A DNA stretch of 34,535 bases, from contig JAQSWS010000035.1 in NCBI GenBank assembly GCA_029266495.1, positions 1 to 34,535 on the forward strand. The letters are read 5' to 3'. Within the stretch, counting starts at the first letter, position 1. Each line of letters begins with the position of its first letter. Source of the stretch: Rariglobus sp. (lineage in GTDB: Bacteria; Verrucomicrobiota; Verrucomicrobiia; Opitutales; Opitutaceae). Positions 12,544 to 34,535 of the stretch are shown here, in pieces. The translations under genes and the position numbers were made by a program. The notes below the pieces were generated by a model. The model did no database searches, was not told the origin of the DNA, and saw only the letters and a program-made list of their open reading frames with translations.

Positions 12544-12552
12544 GTAACTTCC

Positions 12553-12569
12553 TTTTTTGGGGTTGGGGT
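12553..12569 (-). other. C/A-rich leader motif of the second GH16-type gene
   Basis: On the coding strand ACCCCAACCCCAAAAAA ends 9 nt before the ATG at 12543, the same sequence and spacing as at 4344-4358. Here it runs into a purine-rich GGAAG that may serve as ribosome-binding site. GGTATTGGG at 12567-12575 is also repeated inverted at 12617-12625 as CCCAATACC. Confidence 0.45.
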
Positions 12570-12632
12570 ATTGGGCAACAGCGCCCGCCAAATGAACTAT
12601 TGCAGTTGACCTCAACCCCAATACCACCGCCC

Positions 12633-18791: not shown

Positions 18792-20572
18792 ATACACTCG
18801 ACTCGACAACCACTGCTCCGCCCGCCCTGCTCGCCAGCCCCGCCGATTTCGACCGCATCCGCGAGGCCGCGAATCACCCGGGCTTGCTTCGCGATCTAGC
18901 CGCCTTCGTGCGTCATCTGGCCGATCACGAACTCAACGAACCCGTCGTCACCCGCGACATCCAGGGCCGCCGGCTGTTGCACGTATCCCGCCGCCTGCTC
19001 CGTCGCGTCATCAATTGCGGGCTGGCCTATCAACTCGATCGCGACCCGCGTCATGCGCGCCGCGTCATGCTCGACCTCCAGGCCGCCGCCGCTTTCTCCG
19101 ATTGGAACCCGTCGCACGTCCTCGACGTTGCCGAAAGGTGCGCCGCGTTCGCTCTCGGGCTCGACTGGCTTGGCGACGCGTTCACCCCCGACGAGCGCCG
19201 CACCATCGAGGACGCGTTGATCCGTCTCGGACTCGAACCCGGCCTCGCCGATCCTTCCGCATGGTATTTCTCGGCTACCAACAACTGGAACGCCGTGTGC
19301 AACGGTGGTCTCGCCATGGGCGCGATTACTGTGCGCCACCGCCGTCCCGATCTCGCTCAAGCCCTCATCGCGCGCTGCATCGAACAACTCCCCTTGCACG
19401 GGGAAAACTACGCACCGGAAGGCGCCTACACCGAAGGCCCCATGTATTGGGACTACGGCACCACCTTCCATGTGCTGGCCATCGAAAGCCTGTTGCGCGC
19501 AACCGGCTCGACCCACGGTCTAGATGCCTTGCCGGGTTTTCGCCAGAGCGCCGATTACATGGTGCACGTCATCGGGCCCACCGGGGAGTTCTATTCTTAT
19601 TTCGACTCGGGTCCCTCCCGGCTTCCTTTGACCGCACTGCTCTGGTTTGGCCGCCACTACAATATTCCGCGCTTCACCCGTGCCGAAGCCGACAACCTTC
19701 GTCAGATCCTCGCCGCTCCCACCGGGTCGGCCCTTGGCGCGAACTCGCGTTACATTGCCCTGTCCTTGCTGTGGCTGAAGCCCGAACATTTCGCCGATGC
19801 GGCGCCACCCAAAGCCCTCGCGTGGAGCGGTGCCGGCCCCAATCCCGTCGCCTTCTGGCGTTCGGCTTGGACGCCCGACGCCACGTGGGTCGGCGCCAAG
19901 GGCGGCAAGGCCCGTGTCAGCCACGGACATCTGGATGCCGGCTCGTTCGTCTTCGAGGCCGGTGGTGTTCGCTGGGCGGTCGACCCCGGCTCGGAGGACT
20001 ATCATCGCCTGGAATCCATGGGCATCGATCTCTGGGCCCGGGATCGATGGAGCATCTTCCGGCTTGGGTCCGAGGGACACTCGATCCCACGCATCGATGG
20101 CGTGACGCCGGACCCCGACGGCCGGTGTCCGCGTATCCATTGGACCGATACTCCGGCACCCCGGGTTTCCTTCGATCTTGGCGCGCTTTATCCAGGCGTG
20201 GTCGACCGTCTTCACCGCACAATCTCGGACGGCGCCGGCGGGCGGACCTGCTGGCTGGACGAGGTTGGCGGGCTGGCCGCCGGCCGCATCTATCGCTTCA
20301 CCTGGATCACGATTGCCGATGTCATTATCGGGGACAGGTGCGTGCTGCTCGCGCAAAACGGCCGCCAGCTGCGCATTGATGTGGATTGCAACCAGGCGGT
20401 CACCATCGGCGTGATCGACCCGTCCACGCTGCTCAAGCCGCACGACACGCCAATTCCCGGGCTCAAACGCATCGAGTTCGCCTTGATGGCACCTGGCGTC
20501 GACTTCACCCTTCAACTCACTGCAAGGCTCGCCCCCTCCCCTTCCTTCCCTCTCCCATGCCCGACATTTTGA
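18788..20572 (+). CDS. Heparinase II/III-family protein, probable polysaccharide lyase
   Basis: 594 residues, GTG start overlapping the previous stop by 4 bp. The first ~330 residues form an alpha-helical toroid-like region with WYFSATNNWNAVCNGGLAMG (Asn166, Trp167, Asn168) and NYAPEGAYTEGPMYWDYG, followed by a beta-rich domain with the heparinase II/III segment SHGHLDAGSFVFE (His379, His381, Asp383) and WAVDPGSEDY. These are typical of lyases that cleave uronate-containing polysaccharides by beta-elimination (alginate, heparin-like and related substrates). No signal peptide is seen, so it probably acts in the cytoplasm on imported oligosaccharides. Its last 16 bp overlap the start of the GH36-like gene, again indicating coupling. 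The substrate cannot be told from sequence. Confidence 0.85.
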   Translation: MNTLDSTTTAPPALLASPADFDRIREAANHPGLLRDLAAFVRHLADHELNEPVVTRDIQGRRLLHVSRRLLRRVINCGLAYQLDRDPRHARRVMLDLQAAAAFSDWNPSHVLDVAERCAAFALGLDWLGDAFTPDERRTIEDALIRLGLEPGLADPSAWYFSATNNWNAVCNGGLAMGAITVRHRRPDLAQALIARCIEQLPLHGENYAPEGAYTEGPMYWDYGTTFHVLAIESLLRATGSTHGLDALPGFRQSADYMVHVIGPTGEFYSYFDSGPSRLPLTALLWFGRHYNIPRFTRAEADNLRQILAAPTGSALGANSRYIALSLLWLKPEHFADAAPPKALAWSGAGPNPVAFWRSAWTPDATWVGAKGGKARVSHGHLDAGSFVFEAGGVRWAVDPGSEDYHRLESMGIDLWARDRWSIFRLGSEGHSIPRIDGVTPDPDGRCPRIHWTDTPAPRVSFDLGALYPGVVDRLHRTISDGAGGRTCWLDEVGGLAAGRIYRFTWITIADVIIGDRCVLLAQNGRQLRIDVDCNQAVTIGVIDPSTLLKPHDTPIPGLKRIEFALMAPGVDFTLQLTARLAPSPSFPLPCPTF

Positions 20573-22161
20573 CCCCGCCCGACGCGGTCTACATCCTCAC
20601 TCAAAACGACAGCCGTCCTCAACGCGCCCAACGTGGGCAGACTGGCTGGGAGCATGGCTCCGTCCGGGTGGACATCACTCCACTCGACGATCGCTGCGCG
20701 GCGGTTACGGTCACGACCGTGGTGCCGCTCCTCCGGGTGGTGCTCCGCTGGAACGGCCATTTTCCCCCAGGCACGCGCCTCTTGGGCGACGCGTGGGAAC
20801 GCTCCTACGGCGACCTCGAATGGCGGGGCGCCACCCCGCACCGGCTTATGCCGTGGTATTTCCTCGCGCATCATGGCGACCGGACGACCGGCTACGGGGT
20901 TCAGACCGGTGGCGCCGCCTTCGCCGGCTGGCAGGCCGATTCCAGCGGGCTTACCCTCAATCTCGACCTGCGCTCGGGCGGTGTCGGTGTTTCGCCCGGC
21001 ACGCGCCCGCTTTCCGCGGCGGTGCTGGTGCAGCGCGCGGCACACTCCGGCGAATCACCCTTCGCCGCCGCCCGCGCCTTCTGCGCCGCGCTCAGTCCCG
21101 TCCACCTCACGCCCCGCCTTCCGGTTGTCGGCCACAATGACTGGTATTGGCTCTATGGGAAAAATTCCGAGGCGCTTATCCTCGAAGCGACCCGCCGCTT
21201 CGTCGATCTGTATCCAAAAAACACCGACGTCCGCCCGTGGTCGGTGATCGACGACGGGTGGCAGGTTCCCGCCGCCCCCGGGGATCCCTGGTGCAACGGC
21301 GGTCCGTGGAACCAGGGCAACCACCTCTTCCCTGACATGCCCGGGCTGGCCTCCAAAATCAAAGCCCTTGGCGCCCGCCCCGGCATCTGGATGCGTCCGT
21401 TGCAAACCAAGGCCGCGATTCCCGACGCATGGAAGATTCGCTGCCCGAAGCCAAACTCCACCGAGGGCGGCTTCGTCATGGACCCCACCGTGCCCGAGGT
21501 CATCGACTTGATCCGCACCGATATCGCCCGCATCCGTGACTGGGGCTAGGAGATGATCAAACACGATTTCTCCACCTACGACGTGACCGGTCGCTGGGGC
21601 TTTGAAATGAATTCTCCCGACGGTTTCTCGCCCAACGGCTGGGCCTATGCCGACTCCACCCGCACCACCGCGGAAATTCTCACGGACTTCTATCGCGTCA
21701 TCCGGGAGGCCGCCGGCCCCGATGTGCTCCTGATCGGTTGCAACACCGTCGGCCACCTCGCCGCCGGACTTGTAGACATCCAGCGCACCGGCGATGACAC
21801 CTCGGCATCCGACTGGGACCGCACCCGGCGCATGGGCGTGAACACCCTCGCATTCCGCAGTGTTCATCACAACACGCTGTATGCCACCGACGCCGACTGC
21901 GTCCCGATCAGTCCGCGGATCCCGGCACGGCTGAGCCTTCAATGGCTTGATCTGGTCGCCCGCAGCGGCACCCCGCTGTTTTTGTCGATCGACCCGGCGG
22001 CGTGCGATGCGGAGACCGATCAAGCGATCCGCAACGCCCTTGCCGCCGCCGTGAAGAACGCGCCCCCGGCCGAACCCCTCGACTGGCTGGACACGGCCAT
22101 CCCCGGCCGTTGGAAACTGCAAGGCGAAGAGGTAACCTACGACTGGAACGAATGGTGTTGA
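20557..22161 (+). pseudogene. GH36-like alpha-galactosidase interrupted by an in-frame TAG codon
   Basis: The frame from the ATG at 20557 gives 330 residues, then TAG at 21547-21549, then 203 further in-frame codons to the true-looking stop ending at 22161. The two halves join into one clan GH-D protein: an N-terminal beta-sandwich, a barrel start with GHNDWYWLYG and VIDDGWQ, and after the TAG the segment EMIKHDFSTYD that holds the expected nucleophile Asp (codon 337, counting TAG as 331). A second conserved region, QRTGDDTSASDW, would hold the acid/base. Related proteins usually have an aromatic or small residue at the TAG position (WG-x-E), and TAC or TAT to TAG is a single change. The protein would end before its catalytic Asp, so without readthrough it is inactive. 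Sequencing error, recent nonsense mutation and amber suppression are all possible. It overlaps the lyase gene by 16 bp. No signal peptide. Confidence 0.8.
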
Positions 22162-22237: not shown

Positions 22238-22255
22238 TGTTTGTCGGCACAAACA
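22238..22255. promoter_or_regulatory. Candidate operator of a second regulon (box 1, palindromic)
   Basis: This 18-bp element has 7-bp perfect inverted arms TGTTTGT / ACAAACA around a CGGC centre. Its right 14 bp, TGTCGGCACAAACA (22242-22255), recur at 28943 and 32074 with one or two changes. It ends 119 bp before the ATG of the MFS transporter. Confidence 0.6.
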
Positions 22256-22374
22256 TCCGTCATTCGCATGCCGGCCCTTGTGCGTGCTGATTGATCGCTC
22301 GCTCCCGCCTCTTCGCCCGGGGCACCTTGTTTCTCCAGCGGAACGCATTTCGTATCCGCTTTCTTACTACCTAC

Positions 22375-24879
22375 ATGATCGTTACCCGCCAAGGCCGCGT
22401 CCCCTGGTCCTGGGTCTGGCTCTCGCAGCTCCCGTTTGCCTTCTGGATGTTCACGACCTGCCTCCAGAACACCACCTTTACGCTTTCCCTGCGAAAGTTC
22501 GTGGACAACCCGGCGGTCATCGCCGCCACCGTCAGCCTCGCCAGTCTCCCCGTCCTCGTCATCGCACCGCTGGTGAACTATTGCTCCGATCGTATTTGGA
22601 CCCGCTTCGGTCGCCGCAAACCCTTTTACGTTGTCTCCAACTCCATCGGCGCCGGCTGCATGGCTCTCATGCCCCTTGCGCCCGATTACTGGACGCTCAC
22701 CGCGCTCCTCTGGGCGTTCCAAGCCGCCAATGCGTTCGGCAAGACATTCTTCCCGCTCTCGCAGGAAGTCATCCCCGTCCACCAACGCGGTCGCGGCTCC
22801 GCCATTCACACTGTCATGTTCCAGGCGGGGATCGTTCTCTACTATTCATGCATGCTCGGCCGGTTCGACGATGTCTACGCCCACGGCCCGCTCAGCATTT
22901 TGGGGCCGCTGGATGGGGAGCGCTTCACCTACTGGATCTGCGCCCTCCTGATGCTCCTGCCACTCCTTCTCGTCGCGTTCGGAATCAAGGAAATCCCTCT
23001 TCCCGACACCCCCGGCTTTCGCAAAGACCGCACCGGCGCACGCCTCGGACTCATTGGGTTTCTTCGTAAATTCATCGTCGATGTCTTCGACCGCCAGTGG
23101 GCCGTCCTGTATCTTCTGCTCTTTGGAGGCGCCCTCTACGGCCTCGGACTCGGCCCCCTTCAGGCACTCCTCTACACCGAGCAGTGGGGATACTCGCTCC
23201 AGGACATGGGCACCAATGTCGCCTTGGGCACCCTCATCATGATGCCGCTCGTGGCCGCCTGCGGCTGGATCGCAGACCGCTACTCCAAGCTGCGCGTCTA
23301 CCTCGTCGCCATGGGGGCCGCCACCGTTCTCAACCTCGTCTATTTTCTCTTCGTCACCTTCGTGCTTCCCGATCGCCGTCCTGCTCTCTGGCAAATCCTC
23401 CTCTTCGGCGAACTCATCGCGATCTGCGGCCAGGTCATCAGCATCGTCAGCTGGCCTCTCATTTTTGAATACATTCCGCGGAAAAGCATGGGGACCGCCT
23501 CCGCCGGCATGGAAATGATGCATTCTGTTTTCGGCGCCGCTCTTCCTCCGTTGGTCGGTCTCTGGGTTGCGGGCTACGCCGTCGCATTCCTTGCTCCGGC
23601 CGGTCCCCGTGTCGAATTCGTCCTCGCCACCCCGGCCACTCACAACGAGATCACCGCCTCGCTCGCACCCGCCAACCTCGGCGACCTTCATCTCGATCCG
23701 CTTCCCGCCCCCGGTCAGGATCGTTCTGCGCCCGCAGTCCGTTGGAGCATGCGAGCTGGGTCCGCCGATGCGTCTGCTCTTCTTAAAAAGAAAAAGGAAC
23801 TGGAACTCGAACTCACCTCCGCCCAGCGCGCCAAACCCGTCGACTCCGTCCGGCTCGAAGCCCTGCGCGCGGAACTCACCACCTTGGAAACCGGCCTGAC
23901 GGCCCGCGCCGAGACCTTTCGCCAAACGATCGTTGCGGCCCTCGACAACCGTCTTGTGACCGATGGTGGTCAGATTATCGCCGCTCGTTGGGCCGAGTCG
24001 CCCACCCTTATATTGCCGGCCACCGACCGCCTCTCCCGCCGCCAGATCGCCACGCTTGATCGCGAACTCCGCGCCGCTTGGCAGGAAGTAATCCAAGTCG
24101 AATCTACCTCGGTCCTTCCTGGATCCGATCCCGCCGCGCAAAGCGCGCGCATCGTCCTCTCCCCCGGCACCGACTTCGCCGTCTTCATTCCGCGACTGCG
24201 CAGCGCACTCGCCGCCCTCCCCGCCGAGGCCCAACGTCCTTCCGAGCACCTGGGTCGATGGGCACGCCTCAAACGTTTCTTCACGCTGGGCGCTGAGCCC
24301 CCGCCCGCGACACTTCGTGCCGAACTCGCCGGCGCATTCGATCTCGCCGGCCTTGCCCCGGCCGCGTCCGTGCCGGCACTTCGTCTCGAACTCGCCACCC
24401 TGTCGCCCGCCTCGTCCGCCGATCTCGAATCGCTTCAAGCCGCCCTCCGTTCAACCGGTCGCCGCGCCCTCCGTCTCGATCCGCTTGAAACGGCCTCCGG
24501 AATCCTCGTTCACGCCGCCTACTGGGAACTTCCTTCGCCGGCCGGCGGTGGAACGCCTCCCCCGATCGATGCCGGCCTGCACACCGCACTCGCCGCGGCG
24601 TCATCGGAGTCCGTTCCTCTTTCCTCCGCCCTGTCGCTCTATGCTGAAATGCGCATCGCCGCAGCGACGCGCGGACTCGTCGTGCCACAGTCCGTGACGC
24701 GCTCCGACTTCGCCCCGCGCCAATACGATTATTTCAGTGCCTATCTCATCACGATCGCCGGCGGCATTCTGGGCATCCTCATCACGCTTATCGTGGCACG
24801 CCTCGAGCGTCGCGGAGTCATTCGCAAGCTCGGCGTGGAGGAAGAGCAGGCTGCGTCCGGTCACGTCCCCATTCCCTGA
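22375..24879 (+). CDS. MFS (GPH-type) sugar transporter with a large insertion before the last helix
   Basis: 834 residues from the ATG at 22375; the frame extends to a TTG at 22291, but that stretch lacks transporter character. The first ~405 residues look like a standard MFS/GPH sugar permease: helix 1 at WVWLSQLPFAFWMF, the loop motif DRIWTRFGRRKPF after helix 2, and GWIADRYSKLR at the matching point of the second half. About 380 residues follow (405-783) before a final helix (ITIAGGILGILITLIVA) and a basic tail. The insertion contains a coiled-coil-like Lys/Glu/Leu stretch near residue 465 and no further clear membrane helix. With an inward N-terminus and 12 helices the insertion would face the periplasm. 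It probably imports oligosaccharides released by the secreted hydrolases. The next gene follows after 6 bp. Confidence 0.85.
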   Translation: MIVTRQGRVPWSWVWLSQLPFAFWMFTTCLQNTTFTLSLRKFVDNPAVIAATVSLASLPVLVIAPLVNYCSDRIWTRFGRRKPFYVVSNSIGAGCMALMPLAPDYWTLTALLWAFQAANAFGKTFFPLSQEVIPVHQRGRGSAIHTVMFQAGIVLYYSCMLGRFDDVYAHGPLSILGPLDGERFTYWICALLMLLPLLLVAFGIKEIPLPDTPGFRKDRTGARLGLIGFLRKFIVDVFDRQWAVLYLLLFGGALYGLGLGPLQALLYTEQWGYSLQDMGTNVALGTLIMMPLVAACGWIADRYSKLRVYLVAMGAATVLNLVYFLFVTFVLPDRRPALWQILLFGELIAICGQVISIVSWPLIFEYIPRKSMGTASAGMEMMHSVFGAALPPLVGLWVAGYAVAFLAPAGPRVEFVLATPATHNEITASLAPANLGDLHLDPLPAPGQDRSAPAVRWSMRAGSADASALLKKKKELELELTSAQRAKPVDSVRLEALRAELTTLETGLTARAETFRQTIVAALDNRLVTDGGQIIAARWAESPTLILPATDRLSRRQIATLDRELRAAWQEVIQVESTSVLPGSDPAAQSARIVLSPGTDFAVFIPRLRSALAALPAEAQRPSEHLGRWARLKRFFTLGAEPPPATLRAELAGAFDLAGLAPAASVPALRLELATLSPASSADLESLQAALRSTGRRALRLDPLETASGILVHAAYWELPSPAGGGTPPPIDAGLHTALAAASSESVPLSSALSLYAEMRIAAATRGLVVPQSVTRSDFAPRQYDYFSAYLITIAGGILGILITLIVARLERRGVIRKLGVEEEQAASGHVPIP

Positions 24880-24885
24880 GAACCC

Positions 24886-25410
24886 ATGCGCGCCTACGTT
24901 CCTGGTTACACCGCCATCAAGCTTGCATTCGCCGCCGCCGGCGTGGCCATTGCCGTTCTCGGCTACGCGCAACTCGCGGCCCCGCTTCATGCCGCTCTCG
25001 GCCGTGGACATGCCTCTGCCGAAGTCGTGCGCGTGATCATCACCCGCCCCGGGCAGATCGACGAGATCCGTGCCGACGCACGCCCCGTTCCACCGGAGGC
25101 CTCGCGACGCTCCGCCTTTGGCTACGCCGTGCGCCTTCCGGCTCGCGACGGAGAACCTCCGCGCATCGTTCCGCTCGCGTTGCGCCATCGTCTTCGTGCC
25201 GCGTATGGAGTGGGCGATACCGTGCTCGTCACCACCGGATCGGACCCCGCCTCGCCCGCCTACGCCTTGCACGATTTTGCCACGTGGGCGCCGGGCGGCT
25301 TTCTCCTCCTCGCCGGCCTGACCTTCGCCGCCGCGTTTAGCGTTCTCGCAGGTCACTCGCGCCGCCCCATCCCGCTCCCCGCCGATGTCCCGGTCGATGC
25401 CGTGCTCTAA
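24886..25410 (+). CDS. Small two-helix membrane protein, DUF3592-like
   Basis: 174 residues, starting 6 bp after the transporter stop codon. A hydrophobic helix at about residues 10-32 and another at about 134-157 (GGFLLLAGLTFAAAFSVLA) flank a soluble beta-rich segment that would face the periplasm. The segment VLVTTGSDPASPAYALHDF before helix 2 resembles the end of DUF3592 domains. Tight spacing suggests it is translated with the transporter and could assist it or its periplasmic insertion. The function is not known. Confidence 0.7.
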   Translation: MRAYVPGYTAIKLAFAAAGVAIAVLGYAQLAAPLHAALGRGHASAEVVRVIITRPGQIDEIRADARPVPPEASRRSAFGYAVRLPARDGEPPRIVPLALRHRLRAAYGVGDTVLVTTGSDPASPAYALHDFATWAPGGFLLLAGLTFAAAFSVLAGHSRRPIPLPADVPVDAVL

Positions 25411-25463
25411 ATCTTTCGCGCGGTGTCGCCTCGATTCCGCGGGCGGTGAAACCGTTTTCGACC

Positions 25464-26660
25464 ATGCCCTCCGCCTGCCCACCTCCACCCGATCTCGACG
25501 TCTGGATCCTTGCCGGCCAGTCCAACATGCATGGTTGCGGTCTCCTCGCCGAAAGCTTGCGCCCTCACCCCGCGGTCTGGTCCTTCGCGCCCGACGACAC
25601 CTGGGGACCCGCCCTCGAGCCGCTTCACCGTCCGTGGGAAAGCTCCGCGCCGGTCCATCAGGCACTCGCCCGCCGCTGGCTCCCGCCTGCTGATCGCGAG
25701 CTGCCGCGCGAAGAACTGGCCAGCCGCGACCGGACAAACCTTCGCGGAGCCGGCCCCGGTCCCGCCTTCGCCCAGACTCTCCACGCCGCGACCGGACGTC
25801 CTGTCGGACTCATCCCGTGTGCACTGGGCGGCACCACCCTCGAGGAATGGAGTCCCTCGCGCCGTTCCGAGGGCGGCCATAGCCTTTACGGCGCGATGCT
25901 GGAGCGGGTCGCTCGCGCCGGCCGCCCCGTGCGCGGCCTTCTCTGGTATCAGGGGGAGTCCGATGCCCCTTACGAACTCTCCCTTGACTATGGCGAACGC
26001 CTTGCCGCCTGGATTTCAGCCGTGCGCCGGGACCTCTCGCAACCCGATCTGCCGGTGGGCATGGTCCAGATCGGGCGTTTCGTCGGCCTCGAACCACCCG
26101 CTGTTCCCGACGACGACACCGCACGCCGCGCAGCGCTCGGCTGGAACAACGTGCGCCACGCCCAGGCCGCGCTCCCCTGGCAGATGCCGGGCGTTTTCAC
26201 CGTCACCGCGCTTGATCTCGGGATGGAGGATTTCGTGCATCTCAACACCCCTTCGCTCGTCAGGGTCGGCCGTCGTCTTGCGCACGCGTTCCTTGCTCGA
26301 GAAACCGGCGCCGTTCCGGTTCCCTCGCTGCGGGCCGTCCGGCTGGCGGCAATCCCCGGATACCCCCAGCTCGATGCCGTCGACCTGGAGTTTTCCGGCG
26401 TAACCGGCGGATGGATACCACGCGACCACCTCGCCGGTTTCAGCCTTCATCGCCGCGACGGCACGCCCCATCCCTCGCTCGCAATCGTGAACGTGGCCCC
26501 GCTTGCCCCGGACTCACCCACCTTGCGCGTGCGGCTGACCGGGCGGGTGGACAACGATTGCGCGCTCGGCTATGGCTGGGGGCGAAACCCCTTCGTCAAT
26601 GCCGTCGATTCCGCCGATCAGGCGTTGCCGTCCTTCGCTCCGGTCGCTCTCCTTCGCTGA
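25464..26660 (+). CDS. SASA-type (sialate O-acetylesterase / CE6-like) carbohydrate esterase
   Basis: 398 residues from the ATG at 25464; a GTG at 25446 would add six residues. The SGNH-like SASA motifs are clear: WILAGQSNMHG with Ser20 as nucleophile, GGTTLEEWSP, LLWYQGESDA, and EDFVHLN with Asp256 and His259. The family removes acetyl groups from sugars (sialate, xylan). A C-terminal beta-domain of about 120 residues follows the catalytic part. No signal peptide is visible, so it probably deacetylates imported oligosaccharides in the cytoplasm. It lies 53 bp downstream of the small membrane protein and 15 bp upstream of the acetylxylan-esterase-like gene, on the same strand as the transporter. 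Confidence 0.88.
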   Translation: MPSACPPPPDLDVWILAGQSNMHGCGLLAESLRPHPAVWSFAPDDTWGPALEPLHRPWESSAPVHQALARRWLPPADRELPREELASRDRTNLRGAGPGPAFAQTLHAATGRPVGLIPCALGGTTLEEWSPSRRSEGGHSLYGAMLERVARAGRPVRGLLWYQGESDAPYELSLDYGERLAAWISAVRRDLSQPDLPVGMVQIGRFVGLEPPAVPDDDTARRAALGWNNVRHAQAALPWQMPGVFTVTALDLGMEDFVHLNTPSLVRVGRRLAHAFLARETGAVPVPSLRAVRLAAIPGYPQLDAVDLEFSGVTGGWIPRDHLAGFSLHRRDGTPHPSLAIVNVAPLAPDSPTLRVRLTGRVDNDCALGYGWGRNPFVNAVDSADQALPSFAPVALLR

Positions 26661-26675
26661 GTTTCAATCCGCCCC

Positions 26676-27947
26676 ATGACCTACAAAACCCTGTCATTGT
26701 TTCCTCTCTTCATATTCACCGGCGCCCTGTGCCTGGCCGGCGATCTGGTGCTCCTCGGCACATCGGACAAACCCTCCGCGCTCTACGAACCCGGAGAAAA
26801 AATGGTGTTCACGCTCCGTCTGGAAAAAGACGGACAGCCCGTCACCGGCACGCGTCTGACCTGGACGCGCACCGGCGACGATGGCCTCACTGAAAAAGGC
26901 GAATCCGTCTCCTCCGCCGAACCGCTCGTCGTCACCACTTCGACCGCCAAACCCGGCTTCGTGCGCATCCTCGCCACCGCACTCGATGCCGAGGGCAAAC
27001 CCGTGGTCAACGAAAGCAAAAAGAAAGTGGTATTCGACGGCGGCGGCGGCGTGCACCCCGAAACACTCCGCAGCGTCCCGGAACCCGCTGATTTTGACGC
27101 CTACTGGGCCGCCCAAAAAGCAACGCTCGCCAAGACTCCGCTCGCCGTCCTCGAGATGAAACCGCTGCCCGAAAACGTGCCCGCCGCCGCCGCTTTCGAT
27201 GTCAAGATTGCCTGCGCCGGCGGCGCGCCCGTCTCGGGTTACTTCAGCAAAACCAAGAATGCCGCTCCGCGCTCCGCCGGTGCGAGGATCACGTTTCACG
27301 GCTACGGCGTGCGTTCCGCCAGCCGCAACGACCAGCAGGCCGCCGATCCTAAAAAACCCATGCTCGTCCTGGACATCAACGCCCACGGCATCGAGAACGG
27401 CCAGCCTCCGGAATATTATACGAATCTCCAGAAAACCTCGCTCAAGAATTACGCGTTCAGCCGCGAAGAAAACGCCCGCCCGGAAACGGCCTACTTCAAC
27501 GGCATGGTGCTTCGCGTTCTCCGGGCGCTGGAATTCCTGAAGGCGCAACCCGAGTGGGACGGGAAGACCCTGATCGTCTCGGGCGGCAGCCAGGGCGGAT
27601 GGCAGGCATTGATCGCCGCCGGCCTCGATTCCGACGTGAGCCAGTGCCTCGCTTATAAACCCTGGTGCTGCGACCTCGGAGGAGTGACGCTGGGCCGGCT
27701 CAAAGGCTGGCGGCCGGACTACACGCCGGTGATGGATTACTTCGATCCGGTCAACCATGCCAAACGCATCCGCTGCGATACCGTGATCTCAAGCGGCCTC
27801 GGCGACTATGTCTGCCCGCCCTCGGGCATCACCGTTCTCTACAACAACATCCCGGCGGGAGTCACCAAGCGGCTCGAATACCAGCAAGGCGCAACCCACG
27901 GAGAGAGCCCGCTGAACATGGTGCGACACGTGGTCAAAGCGCCCTGA
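26676..27947 (+). CDS. Secreted acetylxylan esterase-like alpha/beta hydrolase (AXE1/CE7 type)
   Basis: 423 residues with a signal peptide (about 1-21, ending CLAG). An N-terminal beta-sandwich (about 22-125) precedes an alpha/beta-hydrolase domain. Catalytic triad candidates are Ser305 in GGSQGG, Asp377 in GLGDYVCPPSG and His408 in GATHGE, the spacing expected for acetylxylan esterase / cephalosporin-C deacetylase (CE7-like) proteins. The likely role is extracellular or periplasmic deacetylation of hemicellulose or its oligomers, opening it to the GH74-like enzymes encoded downstream. It follows the SASA esterase by 15 bp and is probably the last gene of the transporter operon, since the next gene is on the opposite strand. 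Confidence 0.88.
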   Translation: MTYKTLSLFPLFIFTGALCLAGDLVLLGTSDKPSALYEPGEKMVFTLRLEKDGQPVTGTRLTWTRTGDDGLTEKGESVSSAEPLVVTTSTAKPGFVRILATALDAEGKPVVNESKKKVVFDGGGGVHPETLRSVPEPADFDAYWAAQKATLAKTPLAVLEMKPLPENVPAAAAFDVKIACAGGAPVSGYFSKTKNAAPRSAGARITFHGYGVRSASRNDQQAADPKKPMLVLDINAHGIENGQPPEYYTNLQKTSLKNYAFSREENARPETAYFNGMVLRVLRALEFLKAQPEWDGKTLIVSGGSQGGWQALIAAGLDSDVSQCLAYKPWCCDLGGVTLGRLKGWRPDYTPVMDYFDPVNHAKRIRCDTVISSGLGDYVCPPSGITVLYNNIPAGVTKRLEYQQGATHGESPLNMVRHVVKAP

Positions 27948-28061
27948 TCGAGCAGTCCTTCTGCGTGTGGCCACGCGTGTCGGGCGTGTGTTCGACGGGA
28001 AATGGCGGGAATCGATCCACACGGCCGACACAGCCGTGGCTGCAGTTTCCCTGAGTCCACC

Positions 28062-28859
28062 TCAATTCGTCGTCGCCCGGTAATTGCGCCGGAAGATTTC
28101 CGTCGGCGCCAGGATCGCCACATGGCCGTCCACGAAGACGAATTTCCCTTTCGTATTCCCCGCGGACCGAAAGGCAAAATAACCCTTGTTCGACAGCACA
28201 TCCTGATTCGTGCCCGCCGCACCCGCTGCTTGAAACGACTGCGCGGGGTCGCCACCGCTGCCCAGAGCCGAATCCACCTTGTCACTGCCCGGGGTGGCCG
28301 TGCTGTCGTTGATGTCCTGAATGCCGTCGCCAAAGAGGAGCGCCACGCTCGGACCCACCGTAATGCGGTTGAGCGACACCCGGCGGGAGGACGTGGTCGG
28401 GTCGCCTTTGGCCCCCGGCATCAACGTCACATTCGCCGAAAAATGAATGTAGTTGGCCTCATACAACGCATTGGGCGCAGGCACGCGTGCCTGCGGATCC
28501 CGATAGACATTGAGCACGCGCGACATGTTTCCACCACTGGTGTCCCTGGCCAGGATATACGGCGAAAGCAGCTGCGTATAGGTTCCGAATTCCGGCAGAT
28601 CCGGATTCGTCGTGTTCTCATACCATGAGCACGCCGGCAACAATCCCTTGTTGTCGGTTGTATAGGACAGTGCCGCCGTCGCGAGCTGACGCAGATTGGA
28701 CAACCCTTGGGTCTGCCGGCCGGCATCGCGCATCTTGCCAATCACCGGGATGAGAATTGCCACCAGAATGCCGACGATGGCAATCACCGTCAAAAGCTCA
28801 ACCAACGTAAAGGCATGCAGGCGGGAGGGGGTGCGCATGGTGATGCGAACTGGTTTCAT
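28062..28859 (-). CDS. Type II secretion-like pseudopilin (H-X9-DG type)
   Basis: 265 residues. A type IV prepilin leader, SRLHA before FTLVELLTVIAIVGILVAILIPVIGKM, gives the cleavage site (A/F), Glu at +5 and the N-terminal methylated helix. The mature part ends with FVFVDGHVAILAP, the 'DG' motif that marks the large planctomycete/verrucomicrobial pseudopilin families. A start at 28838 (MRTPSRLHAF) is equally possible. It is transcribed divergently from the first GH74-like gene, with 207 bp and one copy of the second regulatory box between them. Such proteins are numerous in these bacteria and may assist export of hydrolases or build surface pseudopili; the specific role is unknown. Confidence 0.88.
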   Translation of the reverse strand: MKPVRITMRTPSRLHAFTLVELLTVIAIVGILVAILIPVIGKMRDAGRQTQGLSNLRQLATAALSYTTDNKGLLPACSWYENTTNPDLPEFGTYTQLLSPYILARDTSGGNMSRVLNVYRDPQARVPAPNALYEANYIHFSANVTLMPGAKGDPTTSSRRVSLNRITVGPSVALLFGDGIQDINDSTATPGSDKVDSALGSGGDPAQSFQAAGAAGTNQDVLSNKGYFAFRSAGNTKGKFVFVDGHVAILAPTEIFRRNYRATTN

Positions 28860-28942
28860 GCCTTGTTTCTACGCCCGGCGCGATCCGTAATCCAGCTCCA
28901 CCCTCCCCCTGCCACCGCCCGGCGATACAACGGCTCGCGTTC

Positions 28943-28956
28943 TGTCGGCACAAACG
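28943..28956. promoter_or_regulatory. Candidate operator of the second regulon (box 2)
   Basis: TGTCGGCACAAACG, 13 of 14 identical to box 1. It ends 110 bp before the ATG of the first GH74-like gene and lies 83 bp from the start of the divergent pseudopilin gene. Confidence 0.55.
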
Positions 28957-29066
28957 CCCGCCTCCGTCCTCGCCGCCCGCCGCCCCTTCTTTGCCACGTC
29001 TCGCCGCCCGCCCCCGCCTCGCCCCACGATCGCAGGATCAACCCTACCCGATCCCTTACCTCCTCC

Positions 29067-31991
29067 ATGCATCTCCTCAGCCGTTGTTTTGCCGCCGTCA
29101 TTCTTCCGGCAATCGCCTCCTTCACTCTCGTCACCCGGGCTGCCGACCTGTCGGCGAACTATGAGTTCAAGCCCGTCAAGCTGGGTGGCGGCGGATTCGT
29201 ATCCGGGATACAGATACATCCGATGGCCGGCGGTCCTGTCTACTGCCGCACCGATGTCGGCGGCCTCTACCGCTGGAACGAAGCCTCCGCCTCCTGGAGA
29301 CAGCTCATGGTCGCCTCCGCCCTTCCATCCGGGGTCATCGCCACCGAGGCGGCAAACTCCGGTGATGGCCTTCCGGGCTCCGGTTCCCACCGCAAACGGC
29401 TCTATCACGTTGAAAGCATCGCCATCGACCCCAGCAACCCCGCCGTCCTCTTCGTTGCCGCGGGCGCCGTCCTCGATCAACCGGGGACTCTTCTCAAAAG
29501 CACCGACGGCGGCCGGTCATTCCAGTTGATGAATCTCACCGTGCCCATGGTCGGCAATGCCCTTTATCACCTTCGGGTGCATGGCGAGCGTCTCGCCGTG
29601 CACCCCGCCAATTCCAAGGTCGTCCTCTTCGGCTCCCGCAGCGAAGGCCTCTGGCGCAGCGTCAACGGCGGTCTCGACTGGGCTCGCGTCGACTCCGTGC
29701 CCGCCGGCCTTGCACCCCCTAAAGGCGTTCCCGTCGGTGTCGGACCGGTCGTCTTCGATGCTGCCAACCCGGGTCGCGCCTATCTCTCCGTCTTCAAGGT
29801 CGGTTCATTCCGTTCCGACGACTCCGGCGCAACCTGGAGTCAGATCGGCTCCGAGTGGGCCGACGACCTGGTCATCTCCAAGGGCGCGGTCTATCTTTGT
29901 CGCGCCGGTCTCGGCGTGCAGCGCTACCTCCCGGCCTCCGGCTGGCTGGCGGTGAACCCCGCCGGCGACAAGCAGGTCAACAACCTCGCCGTCGACCCCG
30001 CCAACCCCAAACGCGTCTTCGCCCTGCATGGCGGCGGGAAAAACATCTACCGCACCCTCGATGGAGGCGACACCTGGACCAGGCTCGTCTCCGGCAGCAC
30101 CGAAAAAGGCCGCGTGCTCTTTCGCTCGCGCGACATTCCCTGGCTGGAGAACGGCGACTCCCGCACCTGGCTTTCCGTCGGCGAGTTCGTGATCGATCCA
30201 CACAACCCGGCGCGCCTGTGGTTCGCCGAGGGCATGGGCCTTTACCGTTCCAATGATGCGACGGACGACAACGATGCCCCGTCCTTCGACAATATCGCCA
30301 ACGGCATGGAGGAATTCGTGGCTTCCGACGTCCTCGCCACTCCCGGCGGCAAGGTCACCTTCCTCGTCTGGGATCGCGTTGGCTTCAACCGCACTCACGC
30401 CACCCTCGACAACGCCCCCGAACACCAGCTCGGCCTCTCTCACAAATTCGGCACCGGCATCGCCCTCGCCACGTCCGGCCTCAATCCCCAGTTCGTCGTC
30501 GCCTCCGTCGCCGACATGCGCCTGCCCCCGCTCAATGGCGGTTACGATGGCTTCGGAGTCACCAGCGGCACGTCCGCCGATGGCGGCGAAACCTGGAGCC
30601 TTTTCGGATCGGTCGATCCCAAGACCGAGGCCAACACACCCGAGACGCTTATGTTCGGCGAGATCGTCGTCAGCGCCACCGACACCCGGAATCTTGTGTG
30701 GCTTCCGCGCTGGCCCACCTGGTTCATCCGCGCCGGCAAGGTCGTTCCCAATGGCGGCGACAACGATCAGTTCATCTATTCGTCGACTGACGGTGGCGCG
30801 TCCTGGCAACCCGCCGCCATCGGCGACTACAAGGACTTCCGCCGGGAATACATGGTTGTAAAACGCTCCCTCGTCGCCGACCCGGTCGTCGGAGGAAAGT
30901 TCTACGCCTACGATCAGCAGGGACGCATCTTCGTCTCCACCGACAAAGGCGCCACCTGGACCGTCGTCAATCCAGCCAGTCCGCTCCCCGTCTACGGCTA
31001 CACCAACGTTCTCCGCGCCTCTCCCGGCCGCGCCGGCCATCTCTGGTTCGTCTCCGGCTGGGATTACCGCGGCGGCAATTCCGAAGGTCTCTACCGCTCG
31101 ATCGATGGCGGTGCGAACTGGCTGAAGGTCGATGGATTTTCCGACACCTGGCACATCGGTTTCGGTCGTGCGGAGCGCGATAAGGGTTATCCCGCAATCT
31201 ACGTTTACGGCAAATACGAGGGCTCCTGGGGTCTTTACCGCTCCACCGACGAAGCCCAAACTTGGGACCTGCTCGCGACCTACCCGCTCGGCCTGGTCGA
31301 CCATGTCACCACACTCAACGGCGACCCCGACCTCTTCGGTCGCGTCTATCTCGGCTACTCCGGCAACGGCTTCGCTTACGGCACCCCGCGCGGCGCAGTC
31401 TCCCGCACCGCCAAACCCGCACCCGCCGTCGCTCCCGCCACGCCCGTCATCCGTTCGACACCACCTCCCGTCACCGTGAAACCGGCCGCGCCGGCTCCCG
31501 CAGCCAAGGTCTCCGCCGCAGCCGCAACCACTGTTAAGTCCGCCAAGGTGGCAGTCACTCCCCGCTACGATTTCGAGACCGACACCCAGGGCTGGGACAA
31601 CGCCTGGAATGACCCCGTGATCAGTGCCGTCGCCATCTCCGCCGATCGTGCCGTCACCGGCAAACACTCCCTCCGCGTGGAGATCAACAACAGCATGGCT
31701 ACCGTGGAAACGGTGAACATCCTCATTCAGTCCCCCACCGTCATCAACCCCGGGGATGTAGTTAAATTCAACTACTGGCTGACCGAGGGCGAAGGCATCA
31801 CTTATCTCTCCCCGTTCGTCATGGGCACCGGCGTCAAGTGGAAGGACAACCAGATCAATCCGGTCACCGGCCACTGGGGCACTGTCAGCCTGGATATACC
31901 GCAGGAGATCGGGACCATCGGCAGCCTGGGTATCCAGCTCATCGTCAAGCCGGGTTTTAAGGGCGCCCTCTACCTCGACGCCATCGAGTAA
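29067..31991 (+). CDS. Secreted GH74-like xyloglucanase with Pro/Ala linker and C-terminal carbohydrate-binding domain
   Basis: 974 residues from the ATG at 29067, chosen because it opens a signal peptide (ending VTRA before ADLSANYEF). The next ~750 residues are a double beta-propeller built of BNR-like repeats (STDGGRSF, RSVNGGLDW, RTLDGGDTW). GH74 hallmarks are GGGGFVSGIQIHP and CRTDVGGLYRW, with Asp63 as one catalytic residue, and Asp483 in SVADMRLPPLNGGYDGF as candidate second catalytic Asp. GH74 enzymes cleave xyloglucan with inversion, endo or from the reducing end; the specificity here is not determined. A Pro/Ala-rich linker (about residues 780-830) joins a C-terminal ~140-residue jelly-roll (YDFETDTQGW to LYLDAIE) resembling CBM4/11-type modules. 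The in-frame sequence from 28707 is not part of the gene. A close paralog starts 214 bp downstream. Confidence 0.88.
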   Translation: MHLLSRCFAAVILPAIASFTLVTRAADLSANYEFKPVKLGGGGFVSGIQIHPMAGGPVYCRTDVGGLYRWNEASASWRQLMVASALPSGVIATEAANSGDGLPGSGSHRKRLYHVESIAIDPSNPAVLFVAAGAVLDQPGTLLKSTDGGRSFQLMNLTVPMVGNALYHLRVHGERLAVHPANSKVVLFGSRSEGLWRSVNGGLDWARVDSVPAGLAPPKGVPVGVGPVVFDAANPGRAYLSVFKVGSFRSDDSGATWSQIGSEWADDLVISKGAVYLCRAGLGVQRYLPASGWLAVNPAGDKQVNNLAVDPANPKRVFALHGGGKNIYRTLDGGDTWTRLVSGSTEKGRVLFRSRDIPWLENGDSRTWLSVGEFVIDPHNPARLWFAEGMGLYRSNDATDDNDAPSFDNIANGMEEFVASDVLATPGGKVTFLVWDRVGFNRTHATLDNAPEHQLGLSHKFGTGIALATSGLNPQFVVASVADMRLPPLNGGYDGFGVTSGTSADGGETWSLFGSVDPKTEANTPETLMFGEIVVSATDTRNLVWLPRWPTWFIRAGKVVPNGGDNDQFIYSSTDGGASWQPAAIGDYKDFRREYMVVKRSLVADPVVGGKFYAYDQQGRIFVSTDKGATWTVVNPASPLPVYGYTNVLRASPGRAGHLWFVSGWDYRGGNSEGLYRSIDGGANWLKVDGFSDTWHIGFGRAERDKGYPAIYVYGKYEGSWGLYRSTDEAQTWDLLATYPLGLVDHVTTLNGDPDLFGRVYLGYSGNGFAYGTPRGAVSRTAKPAPAVAPATPVIRSTPPPVTVKPAAPAPAAKVSAAAATTVKSAKVAVTPRYDFETDTQGWDNAWNDPVISAVAISADRAVTGKHSLRVEINNSMATVETVNILIQSPTVINPGDVVKFNYWLTEGEGITYLSPFVMGTGVKWKDNQINPVTGHWGTVSLDIPQEIGTIGSLGIQLIVKPGFKGALYLDAIE

Positions 31992-32073
31992 AGCCCGCCC
32001 TCCGTGTAGGGCTGCCGCTTGCGGCACGCCGGCTCGATTCCGGAGCGGCGGTCTGCGGCAACGCGACGCCCGC

Positions 32074-32087
32074 TGTCCGCACAAACG
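32074..32087. promoter_or_regulatory. Candidate operator of the second regulon (box 3)
   Basis: TGTCCGCACAAACG, 13 of 14 identical to box 2. It ends 118 bp before the ATG of the second GH74-like gene, the same distance class as boxes 1 and 2. Confidence 0.55.
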
Positions 32088-32205
32088 CCGTCCTCCGCCA
32101 TGCCACCCGGGCTTCTCCTGCCCGGCCCCGCCTCGCCGTGCGCTCCGGCCACGCTCCAAGCTCACCGTGTTGGTTCACCCTTGTTGGAGTTCAACCCCTA
32201 CCCCC

Positions 32206-34535
32206 ATGTATCACCTCAACCGTCTGCGCGGATTCGTCTCCGCTGCCCTCCTCGCGTCCCTCGGGATGCTCGCCCCGTCCACCCTTGTTGCCGCGGACCT
32301 TTCCGCCCACTACGAATTCAAACCCGTCAAAATCGGCGGTGGCGGTTTTGTCACCGGACTTCAACTACACCCGACGGCCGGCGGTCCCGTCTATTGCCGC
32401 ACGGATGTCGGCGGTGTCTATCGCTGGAATGAGACCTCCGCCTCCTGGAGTCAGCTGATGGTCGCCTCCGCCCTGCCCGCCGCCGTCATCGCCGCCGAGG
32501 CGGTCAACACCGGCGACGGCCTCCCCGGTTCCGGATCGCACCGCACCCGGCTCTATCACGTCGAAAGCATCGCCATCGATCCCAGCAATCCCGCCGTTCT
32601 CTTCGTCGCCTCCGGCAGCGTCCTCGATCAGGCCGGCACTCTCCTCAAGAGCACCAACGGCGGCCAGACCTTCCAGGCGATGAACCTCACCGTTCCGATG
32701 GCCGGCAACTCCCCCTACGAAGCGCGCGTGCACGGCGAACGACTCGCCGTGCACCCCACCAACTCCAGCATCGTCCTCTACGGCTCACGCACCCAGGGCC
32801 TCTGGCGCAGCGTCAACGGCGGAGTCGATTGGACCCAGGTCACCGCCGTGCCTGTCGGCACGCTCGTCGGCGGAAAACCTGTCGGCGTCGGCCCCGTTGT
32901 CTTCGACGCCGCTAATCCCGGCCGCGCCTACCTCTCCGTCGCCAACACCGGCACCTACCGCTCCAACGACTCCGGCGCCACCTGGAGCCAGATCGGCACC
33001 GACTGGGCCCAGGACCTCGTCATATCCCAAGGCACCATTTACATCTGCCGTGAAGGCCTCGGCGTCCGGCGTTATCTCCCCGCCTCCGGCTGGACTGCGG
33101 TGAACCCACTCAGCGATACGCAGGTCAACAACCTCGCGGTAGACCCCGCCAATTCGAACCGCGTTTTCGCCATGCATCAGGGTTCGAAAAAGATCTACCG
33201 GAGCATCAACGGCGGCACCGCTTGGACCAAGCTCGTCACCTCCAGCGATCTGCCCGGCCGCGCGCTCTTCCGCTCCACCACCATCCCCTGGATGGAGAAC
33301 AACGATTCTCGCACCTGGCTCTCCGCCGGCGAACTCGCCGTCGATCCGAACACCCCCTCCCGCCTCTGGTTCGCCGAGGGCATGGGCGTGTGGCGTTCCG
33401 TCGACGCCACCGACACGAACAACTCGCCCGCCTTCGATAACATTTCCCACGGCATCGAGGAACTCGTCGCCTCCGACGTCCTCGCCACCCCCGGAGGCAA
33501 GGTCACCTTCCTCGTCTGGGATCGCGTCGGCTTCAACCGCACCCACGCCACCCTCGACACTTCCCCGATCACCCAGATCGGCCTCTCCCAGACCTTCAAC
33601 ATGGGCATCTCCCTCGCCACCTCCGGCCTCAACCCGAACTTCGTCGTCGCCGCCGTCACCGACATTCGCATGCCCACGATCCACGGCGGTTACGATGGCT
33701 TCGGTGTCATGAGCGGCAGTTCCACCAACGGCGGCACGGACTGGAGTCTCTTCGGCTCCGTCAACCCGACCACCGAGGCCAACACGCCCGAGACCCTCAT
33801 GTTCGGCGAGATCGTCGTCAGCGCCACCAACACCAGTAATCTCGTCTGGCTCCCGCGCCTGCCCACCTGGTTTATCCGCAACGGTGCGGTCGTTCCCGAT
33901 GGCGACGGCACCGCCAACGACCAGTTCATCTATTCGTCCACCAATGGCGGCGCCTCCTGGCAGGCCGCCTCCATCGGCGACTACCAGGACTTCCGCCGCG
34001 AATACATGGTCGTGAAACGCTCCCTGGTCGCCGACACCGTCACCGGCGGCAAATTCTACGCCTACGACCGCCTGGGCCGCCTCTTCGTCTCCACCAACAA
34101 CGGAGCCAGCTGGGCCAGCGCCGGCGGCACGCTTCCGTCCTATTGCTACGCCAATGTCCTTCGCGCCGCCCCCGCCCGCGCCGGCCATCTCTGGTTCGTC
34201 ACCGGTCGCGATCATCGCACCCTCAGCAACGAAGGCTTTTACCGTTCCATCAACGGAGGCACGACCTGGACCAAGCTCACCGGTTTCACCGCCACCTGGC
34301 ACATCGGCTTTGGCCGCGCGCTCCAAACCGGCGGCTACCCCACGATCTACGTTTACGGCAAATACAACGGCGCCTGGGGCCTCTACCGCTCCACCGACGA
34401 AGCCGTGACCTGGGACCTTCTCGCCACCTACCCGCTCGGCTTGCTCGACCACATCACCACCCTCGCCGGCGACCCTGATCTCTTCGGTCGCGTCTATCTC
34501 GGTTTCAGCGGCAATGGCTTCGCCTACGGTGGCCC
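32206..34535 (+). CDS. Secreted GH74-like xyloglucanase, tandem paralog (3' end missing)
   Basis: The frame is open from the ATG at 32206 to the right edge (776 codons). A signal peptide (about 1-30, ending LVAA) precedes DLSAHYEFKPVKIGGGGFVTG. The protein matches the gene at 29067 almost motif for motif: CRTDVGGVYRW with Asp67, RSVNGGVDW, and Asp486 in AVTDIRMPTIHGGYDGF as second candidate catalytic Asp. The visible part ends at FSGNGFAYGG, equivalent to YSGNGFAYGT of the paralog just before its Pro/Ala linker, so only the linker and any C-terminal module are out of view. The BNR-like motifs are richer in Asn and Thr here. The preceding gene ends 214 bp upstream and box 3 lies between, so it likely has its own promoter. 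Activity on xyloglucan is inferred from family. Confidence 0.88.
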   Translation, partial: MYHLNRLRGFVSAALLASLGMLAPSTLVAADLSAHYEFKPVKIGGGGFVTGLQLHPTAGGPVYCRTDVGGVYRWNETSASWSQLMVASALPAAVIAAEAVNTGDGLPGSGSHRTRLYHVESIAIDPSNPAVLFVASGSVLDQAGTLLKSTNGGQTFQAMNLTVPMAGNSPYEARVHGERLAVHPTNSSIVLYGSRTQGLWRSVNGGVDWTQVTAVPVGTLVGGKPVGVGPVVFDAANPGRAYLSVANTGTYRSNDSGATWSQIGTDWAQDLVISQGTIYICREGLGVRRYLPASGWTAVNPLSDTQVNNLAVDPANSNRVFAMHQGSKKIYRSINGGTAWTKLVTSSDLPGRALFRSTTIPWMENNDSRTWLSAGELAVDPNTPSRLWFAEGMGVWRSVDATDTNNSPAFDNISHGIEELVASDVLATPGGKVTFLVWDRVGFNRTHATLDTSPITQIGLSQTFNMGISLATSGLNPNFVVAAVTDIRMPTIHGGYDGFGVMSGSSTNGGTDWSLFGSVNPTTEANTPETLMFGEIVVSATNTSNLVWLPRLPTWFIRNGAVVPDGDGTANDQFIYSSTNGGASWQAASIGDYQDFRREYMVVKRSLVADTVTGGKFYAYDRLGRLFVSTNNGASWASAGGTLPSYCYANVLRAAPARAGHLWFVTGRDHRTLSNEGFYRSINGGTTWTKLTGFTATWHIGFGRALQTGGYPTIYVYGKYNGAWGLYRSTDEAVTWDLLATYPLGLLDHITTLAGDPDLFGRVYLGFSGNGFAYGG

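What the first reader, a model, noticed from the sequence alone, without database searches (positions are those of the whole stretch)
22238..32087. A second, different box at conserved distance from the transporter and both GH74-like genes
TGTC(G/C)GCACAAAC(A/G) is found at 22242, 28943 and 32074, ending 119, 110 and 118 bp before the start codons of the MFS transporter and two GH74-like genes. The first copy lies inside an 18-bp dyad (TGTTTGT / ACAAACA). Shared sequence, orientation and distance suggest a real regulator site and link the transporter to the GH74 enzymes. The regulator is not obvious in the window.
Basis: seen in the sequence. Interest (0 to 1): 0.65.

Follow-up and report, generated by a model that had tools for sequence, protein, structure and literature searches.

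The report
Shared promoter box for xyloglucan genes
In a bacterium of the Opitutaceae group, the start regions of a sugar transporter and two plant-fibre enzymes carry the same 14-letter DNA word, most likely the landing site of one ordinary sugar-sensing switch protein; useful for annotation, but not a new kind of biology.

Summary
The box is there as described: TGTCSGCACAAACR at 22242, 28943 and 32074, ending 119, 110 and 118 bp before the start codons of an MFS transporter and two GH74 genes. The exact pattern occurs nowhere else in the 4.89-Mb genome. Support is weaker than three independent copies: the GH74 genes are paralogues whose upstream DNA is homologous from the box onward, so the case rests mainly on transporter versus GH74a, a match expected about 0.04 times per window on an empirical null. 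The distant relatives examined lack it.

The invariant core is TGT-N4-ACA, the spacing of AraR operators. The window stops inside the second GH74. Contig C71, probably its continuation, holds a similar C-terminal module, an esterase and a truncated regulator with a LacI-type sensor. Its four full-length paralogues have a GntR domain (one below cut-off); one contig with two of them also holds a GH74; likely operators of that family, TGTTYRAACA, are TGT-N4-ACA too. Best reading: a small local regulon of an AraR-like GntR/LacI chimera. The site is probably real; the regulator is only a candidate. New member of a known kind.

The parts
22238..22255 (+). 18-bp dyad TGTTTGT-CGGC-ACAAACA containing box copy 1 (22242-22255), 119 bp before ATG 22375
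28943..28956 (+). box copy 2, TGTCGGCACAAACG, 110 bp before ATG 29067; also upstream of the divergent prepilin-type gene
32074..32087 (+). box copy 3, TGTCCGCACAAACG, 118 bp before ATG 32206
28942..29026 (+). block homologous to 32073-32158, starting at the box (72% identity)
32073..32158 (+). block homologous to 28942-29026, starting at the box
22375..24879 (+). MFS transporter, 834 aa
   Evidence: MFS_1 7e-20; alignment with 11 relatives
24886..25410 (+). 174-aa ORF, no Pfam or NCBIfam match, probably co-transcribed with the transporter (inferred from the 6-bp gap)
25446..26660 (+). SASA-type carbohydrate esterase
   Evidence: 3.1e-53
26676..27947 (+). AXE1-type acetyl xylan esterase
   Evidence: 5.4e-26
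28062..28859 (-). prepilin-type protein, divergent from GH74a across box copy 2
   Evidence: N_methyl, TIGR02532
29067..31991 (+). GH74a, 974 aa, with a C-terminal carbohydrate-binding-like module (Mann_GBD_bact)
32206..34535 (+). GH74b, cut by the end of the contig; 72% identical to GH74a over 778 residues

Best explanation
The box is the operator of one local carbohydrate regulator that controls the transporter operon (transporter, 174-aa protein, two esterases) and each of two tandem GH74 xyloglucanase genes together. The core TGT-N4-ACA is bound by a dimer of a GntR-type winged helix. The best candidate is the regulator on contig C71: a LacI-type sugar sensor, probably behind a GntR-type DNA-binding domain as in AraR, which leaves its operator (or changes its action) when a xyloglucan breakdown sugar binds. 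Shown: sequence, position, uniqueness of the exact word, homology of the two GH74 upstream blocks, domain make-up of the C71 protein and its paralogues. Inferred: that the box binds protein, the operon, that C71 continues the window, that C71's missing N-terminus is a GntR domain, repression rather than activation, and the inducer.
For: Three copies, same strand, 110-119 bp from start codons, exact word nowhere else in the genome. Transporter and GH74a share an exact 13-mer at matching distance, about 0.04 expected per window, with no clear homology around it. GH74a and GH74b are identical at 13 of 14 box letters in a block otherwise 49 of 72 identical (P about 0.03). Core TGT-N4-ACA in 3 of 3 copies; it gives 60 strand counts (30 places) in 796 kb and 2 strand counts in 395 sampled promoter stretches. 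The AraR consensus At(T/A)tGTaCGTAcaa(A/T)T has the same spacing (PMC4218819, passages), and many GntR-family sites follow GT-Nx-AC (PMC4494728, passages). C71 carries the only other copy of the GH74a C-terminal module found in the genome at E 0.01 (49% over 144 aa), in a protein cut at the contig edge, then a SASA esterase, then a regulator with Peripla_BP_3. Its four full-length paralogues have GntR domains, one of them below the curated cut-off. Contig C65 holds two of them plus a GH74 and a SASA esterase. In same-genus genome G041 a relative directly precedes a GH74. Likely operators of that family, TGTTYRAACA, occur at 19 places against 5 for the control, two of them 8 and 77 bp before the C120 regulator and one 148 bp before the C65 GH74.
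Against: The GH74 copies are paralogous, so there are about two independent observations. No relative keeps the box (0 of 20; 0 of 43, with fewer than 3 mismatches). The left arm is poor in the GH74 copies. The C71 regulator lacks its DNA-binding end in the assembly, and no loose matching fragment was found. C71's link to the window is inferred; the two contig ends show no overlap by eye. The regulator-GH74 association is partial: the genome's GH74 pair on C100 has no such regulator on its contig, the C120 and C55 regulators have no GH74 at E 1e-50 on their contigs, and only 1 of 5 GH74 loci from other genomes shows one, within 1.5-kb flanks. The family's sites have centre TYRA, not CSGC; the C55 regulator has none in the 317 bp before it; C65 has no TTGT-N3..5-ACAA and the two in C120 lie about 7 kb from its regulator.
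Confidence: 0.42

Rival explanations
1. The box is a true operator, but of another regulator of the genome: one of the other GntR, LacI or AraC-type proteins, possibly an activator reading an asymmetric site, since the right half GCACAAAC is fully conserved and the left half is not.
For: The conserved part is asymmetric. The genome has 13 GntR-domain matches, 12 over the cut-off, and LacI regulators in the window. The C71 regulator lacks its DNA-binding domain and cannot be matched to the site.
Against: The box beside the window's LacI pair is different, CTGAACRYGTTCAG at 2818, 8817, 12633 and 13752, all in the left part. A word with only three local copies suits a local regulator (inference).
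Confidence: 0.3
2. No regulator site: GH74a and GH74b share the box by duplication, and the transporter matches by chance.
For: Homology of the two GH74 upstream stretches begins at the box. Shared words of 13 or more bases arise at about 0.24 per window, 0.04 at matching distance. Not found in relatives.
Against: Needs a chance 13-mer at matching distance that also carries a full 7+7 dyad with operator spacing, and better than average retention in GH74b.
Confidence: 0.22
3. The shared word marks a promoter or leader element copied between genes (promoter shuffling), not a regulator site.
For: GH74 homology starts exactly at the box; a weak further match of the transporter to GH74a downstream of the box (34 of 1000 shuffles reach it).
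Against: No sigma-70-like consensus promoter at the box, no Rfam match at gathering score, no homology between the transporter and GH74b outside the box (455 and 124 of 1000).
Confidence: 0.06

Closest known systems
AraR operators (ara boxes) of Bacillus subtilis, GntR/LacI chimeric repressor
   Same: TGT-N4-ACA core in a palindrome; few sites (at least eight boxes in five promoters) in front of transport and polysaccharide enzyme genes; regulator with GntR domain plus LacI-type sensor (PMC4218819 and PMC4494728, passages only)
   Different: Centre CSGC instead of aCGT, left arm poor in two of three copies, sugar unknown; the paralogues here carry a further C-terminal domain of about 190 residues
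LacI-type operators of the same window (CTGAACRYGTTCAG)
   Same: Palindromic sites shared by several promoters of the same cluster
   Different: Different sequence, left part of the window only, LacI-family genes adjacent
Known bacterial xyloglucan utilisation systems (Cellvibrio japonicus, Ruminiclostridium cellulolyticum, Xanthomonas)
   Same: GH74 enzymes with transport and accessory enzymes (mostly recalled; only the search listing and starts of abstracts were seen)
   Different: Lineage, transporter type and, as far as recalled, regulators; no operator for this lineage seen in the listings

Membership tests
AraR/GntR-type operator | GT-Nx-AC core, N4 for AraR | tested here: met
   TGT-CSGC-ACA in 3 of 3 copies; consensus
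AraR/GntR-type operator | palindromic arms | tested here: inconclusive
   7+7 in the transporter copy, 4 of 7 left-arm bases matching in the two GH74 copies (by eye)
AraR/GntR-type operator | cognate GntR/LacI chimera in the locus | tested here: inconclusive
   C71 regulator has the LacI-type sensor; DNA-binding end lost at the contig edge; contig order inferred
AraR/GntR-type operator | binding and sugar-dependent release | not testable with these tools
   needs experiment
Operator of the window's LacI pair | matches CTGAACRYGTTCAG | tested here: not met
   no match of that pattern at up to 2 mismatches right of 13765
GH74 xyloglucanase (target genes) | sequence relation to solved GH74 enzymes | tested here: met
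   2cn2 E 2.2e-55 over residues 28-775 of GH74a; GH74b by its 72% identity to GH74a
GH74 xyloglucanase (target genes) | catalytic aspartates | not tested
   not aligned to the solved structures residue by residue

The most novel reading that the evidence does not exclude
A family of three-domain regulators (GntR DNA-binding domain, LacI-type sensor, conserved C-terminal domain of about 190 residues with no Pfam match) governs xyloglucan clusters in this genus, with paralogues reading variants of a TGT-N4-ACA operator: TGTTYRAACA for the C65 and C120 members, TGTCSGCACA for the C71 member. The extra domain could be a second sugar sensor.
Probability: 0.3. Interest if true: 0.5.

Novelty: new member of a known kind. 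Interest (0 to 1): 0.33.

Why it matters
It would give an operator and a candidate regulator for xyloglucan use in Opitutaceae, where the listings of my paper searches showed no described binding sites, and it predicts which transporter takes up the products of the GH74 enzymes. The kind of system, a small sugar regulon under an AraR-like regulator, is familiar.

Tried and rejected
Conservation in relatives: 20 homologue loci (12 transporter, 8 GH74, of which 1 and 3 are paralogues in the own genome) and 43 of the 47 loci (L150-L153 dropped because they match only 32-40 residues). None has fewer than 3 mismatches. In one search the best scores were no better than in the reversed control (3 mismatches: 2 against 5 loci; 4: 10 against 15). 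One 3-mismatch match in a genome of the same order (L065) lies at a similar distance but lacks TGT-N4-ACA. One search was a first try of the 20 with some loci in the wrong orientation and is superseded.

Wider regulon: of the 7 places with 1 mismatch, 6 lie inside called genes and the seventh inside an ORF that looks AraC-like by eye; of 112 two-mismatch places 20 were fetched and 17 of these lie inside called genes. In the 251 other family genomes there are 13 matches against 12 in the reversed-control columns (counted from the table); 10 of the 13 lie inside called genes.

Dyad TTTGT-N4-ACAAA: three places in the genome, control 0; the one on C32 seems coding by eye, though my gene caller called nothing there, and the one on C63 is intergenic and of the TGTTYRAACA type. 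Riboswitch or known RNA: no Rfam match. Sigma-70 promoter: none at the box. RNA hairpin: only the transporter copy has full arms. Leader peptide: no shared reading frame, judged by eye.

Limits of the null: the gene caller was my own, codon-based. In one search it placed the transporter start at TTG 22291 (set to ATG 22375; only then are transporter and GH74a at matching distance), and GH74b's promoter was not in the set because its frame runs off the contig. No structure was predicted.

Full report
Observation. TGTCSGCACAAACR is found at 22242, 28943 and 32074 on the + strand with no other exact match in the window. The copies end 119, 110 and 118 bp before ATG codons at 22375, 29067 and 32206. 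The transporter start is supported by relatives, 11 of 12 of which have an ATG at the aligned position. The first copy sits in the dyad TGTTTGT-CGGC-ACAAACA, 22238-22255. The targets are an MFS transporter and two GH74-type enzymes. The genome is of the Opitutaceae: a genome of its genus (G117) shares a transporter contig of the same length, 19038 bp, with a named Opitutaceae assembly (inferred from the length).

Is it more than chance? In the whole genome (4,892,833 bases, 172 contigs, 99.75% complete) the exact pattern occurs only at these three places, with one match for the reversed control. Allowing two mismatches gives 122 against 88, a modest excess, and 23 of the 27 such inexact places examined lie inside called genes, a 24th inside an uncalled ORF. 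In 252 family genomes, 14 have an exact match and none but this one has more than one. Because the pattern was chosen after looking, I took 795,868 bases of the same genome, called genes, and compared promoters lying within 34.5 kb of each other: among 4906 background pairs, 13 shared words of at least 13 bases were found, 2 of them within 10 bp of the same distance to the start codon (one of the two is a low-complexity word, and an 18-mer misses the distance limit by 1 bp). For 91 pairs in the window that means about 0.24 and 0.04 expected. No equidistant triple at up to one mismatch in 14 was seen in the background (GH74b's promoter was not in the window's set).

The three copies are not three independent cases. 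GH74a and GH74b are paralogues (72% identical). Their upstream DNA is homologous over 28942-29026 and 32073-32158, 72% identical, a block that begins at the box. Downstream of the box the similarity exceeds all 1000 shuffles; upstream it is not above chance (541 of 1000). Within the block the rest is 49 of 72 identical and the box 13 of 14, a mild excess (P about 0.03). The transporter stretch has no clear homology to either outside the box. So the case is one good cross-gene match, mild extra retention, and a recognisable operator shape.

Relatives. Transporter and GH74 homologues in the family, order and own genome (20 loci, 32-40% identical) and 43 transporter homologues from named genomes (27-44%; 8 places shared with the first set) lack the box. 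No close orthologue was found: of 387 genomes of the phylum, only the window's own has GH74a-like matches at E 1e-120, and these are its own two genes; the named-genome scan with GH74a gave none. Absence in such distant relatives says little.

Shape. All three copies contain TGT-N4-ACA. This core occurs at 30 places in the 796-kb sample and 5 in the window, with only 2 strand counts in 395 sampled promoter stretches. The ara box consensus of B. subtilis AraR, At(T/A)tGTaCGTAcaa(A/T)T, has this spacing, and many GntR-family sites follow GT-Nx-AC (PMC4218819 and PMC4494728, passages read). AraR joins a GntR DNA-binding domain to a LacI-type sensor.

Candidate regulator. The window is a whole contig and ends inside GH74b. 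Searching the genome with the C-terminal part of GH74a gave, besides the two GH74 genes themselves and a weak hit in the C65 GH74, only contig C71. C71 (4325 bp) begins, on its minus strand, with a protein cut at the contig edge that ends in the same kind of module (49% over 144 aa), followed by a SASA esterase and, converging on it, a regulator cut at the other edge, with a Peripla_BP_3 sensor. That C71 continues the window is an inference. A profile of this regulator and its relatives finds five strong matches in the genome, C71 itself and four full-length paralogues, two on C65, one on C120, one on C55, plus six much weaker ones. The four have a GntR domain, that of C55 below the cut-off, and share with C71 a C-terminal domain of about 190 residues that no Pfam model covered. 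C65 also holds a GH74 and a SASA esterase, and in the same-genus genome G041 a relative directly precedes a GH74. The association is not general: the GH74 pair on C100 has no such regulator on its contig, and of 5 GH74 loci from other genomes only G041's shows one within 1.5 kb. Palindromes TGTTYRAACA occur at 19 places in the genome against 5 for the control: two lie 8 and 77 bp before the C120 regulator, one 148 bp before the C65 GH74; of the 15 fetched, 9 are intergenic. The C55 regulator has none just upstream. These sites too are TGT-N4-ACA, with a different centre. The model is that the C71 paralogue reads the CSGC variant. It cannot be tested on the protein, because the DNA-binding end is missing.

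How it would work. Without inducer the dimer sits on the box and holds the transporter operon and both GH74 genes low; a xyloglucan breakdown sugar binds the LacI-type sensor and releases them. Repression is assumed from AraR; activation is not excluded. My odds: site real about 0.75; the C71 regulator, given a real site, about 0.55.

The window's two LacI-family genes (75.6% identical) sit with another box, CTGAACRYGTTCAG, confined to the left part, so the cluster seems to hold two neighbouring regulons.

Noticed in passing
window 20557-22161: Two ORFs in the same frame (20557-21549 and 21553-22161) are separated by a single in-frame TAG at 21547-21549; the protein looks alpha-galactosidase-like by recall only (no Pfam match for the pieces). 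Either a broken gene or a sequence error.
   Followed up: no
window 2818, 8817, 12633, 13752: Perfect LacI-type palindromes CTGAACRYGTTCAG in front of several genes, including both of a pair of LacI-family regulators (8945-9988 and 12669-13697, 75.6% identical).
   Followed up: partly
L170 (C65) 49-1905 and 10698-12599; L174 8516-10378; L172 10318-12183; L181 2-1651: Five regulators of one genome with a GntR domain (lost in the cut C71 copy, below cut-off in the C55 copy), LacI-type sensor and a conserved C-terminal domain of about 190 residues without a Pfam match.
   Followed up: partly
own genome, 19 places; e.g. C120:30386 and 30455, C65:6184: Palindrome TGTTYRAACA enriched (19 places against 5 for the control), 9 of 15 fetched intergenic, some next to these regulators or a GH74.
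   Followed up: partly
window 22375-24879: The MFS transporter and its relatives in Verrucomicrobiota and Planctomycetota share a long extra stretch (roughly residues 410-785, judged by eye; relatives are 826-857 aa long) before the last part of the protein.
   Followed up: no
window 14789-18076 and 28062-28859: A protein resembling Verru_Chthon cassette proteins (recalled from its N-terminus) and a prepilin-type protein with a TIGR02596 match far below cut-off sit inside the carbohydrate cluster; the latter is divergent across box copy 2.
   Followed up: no
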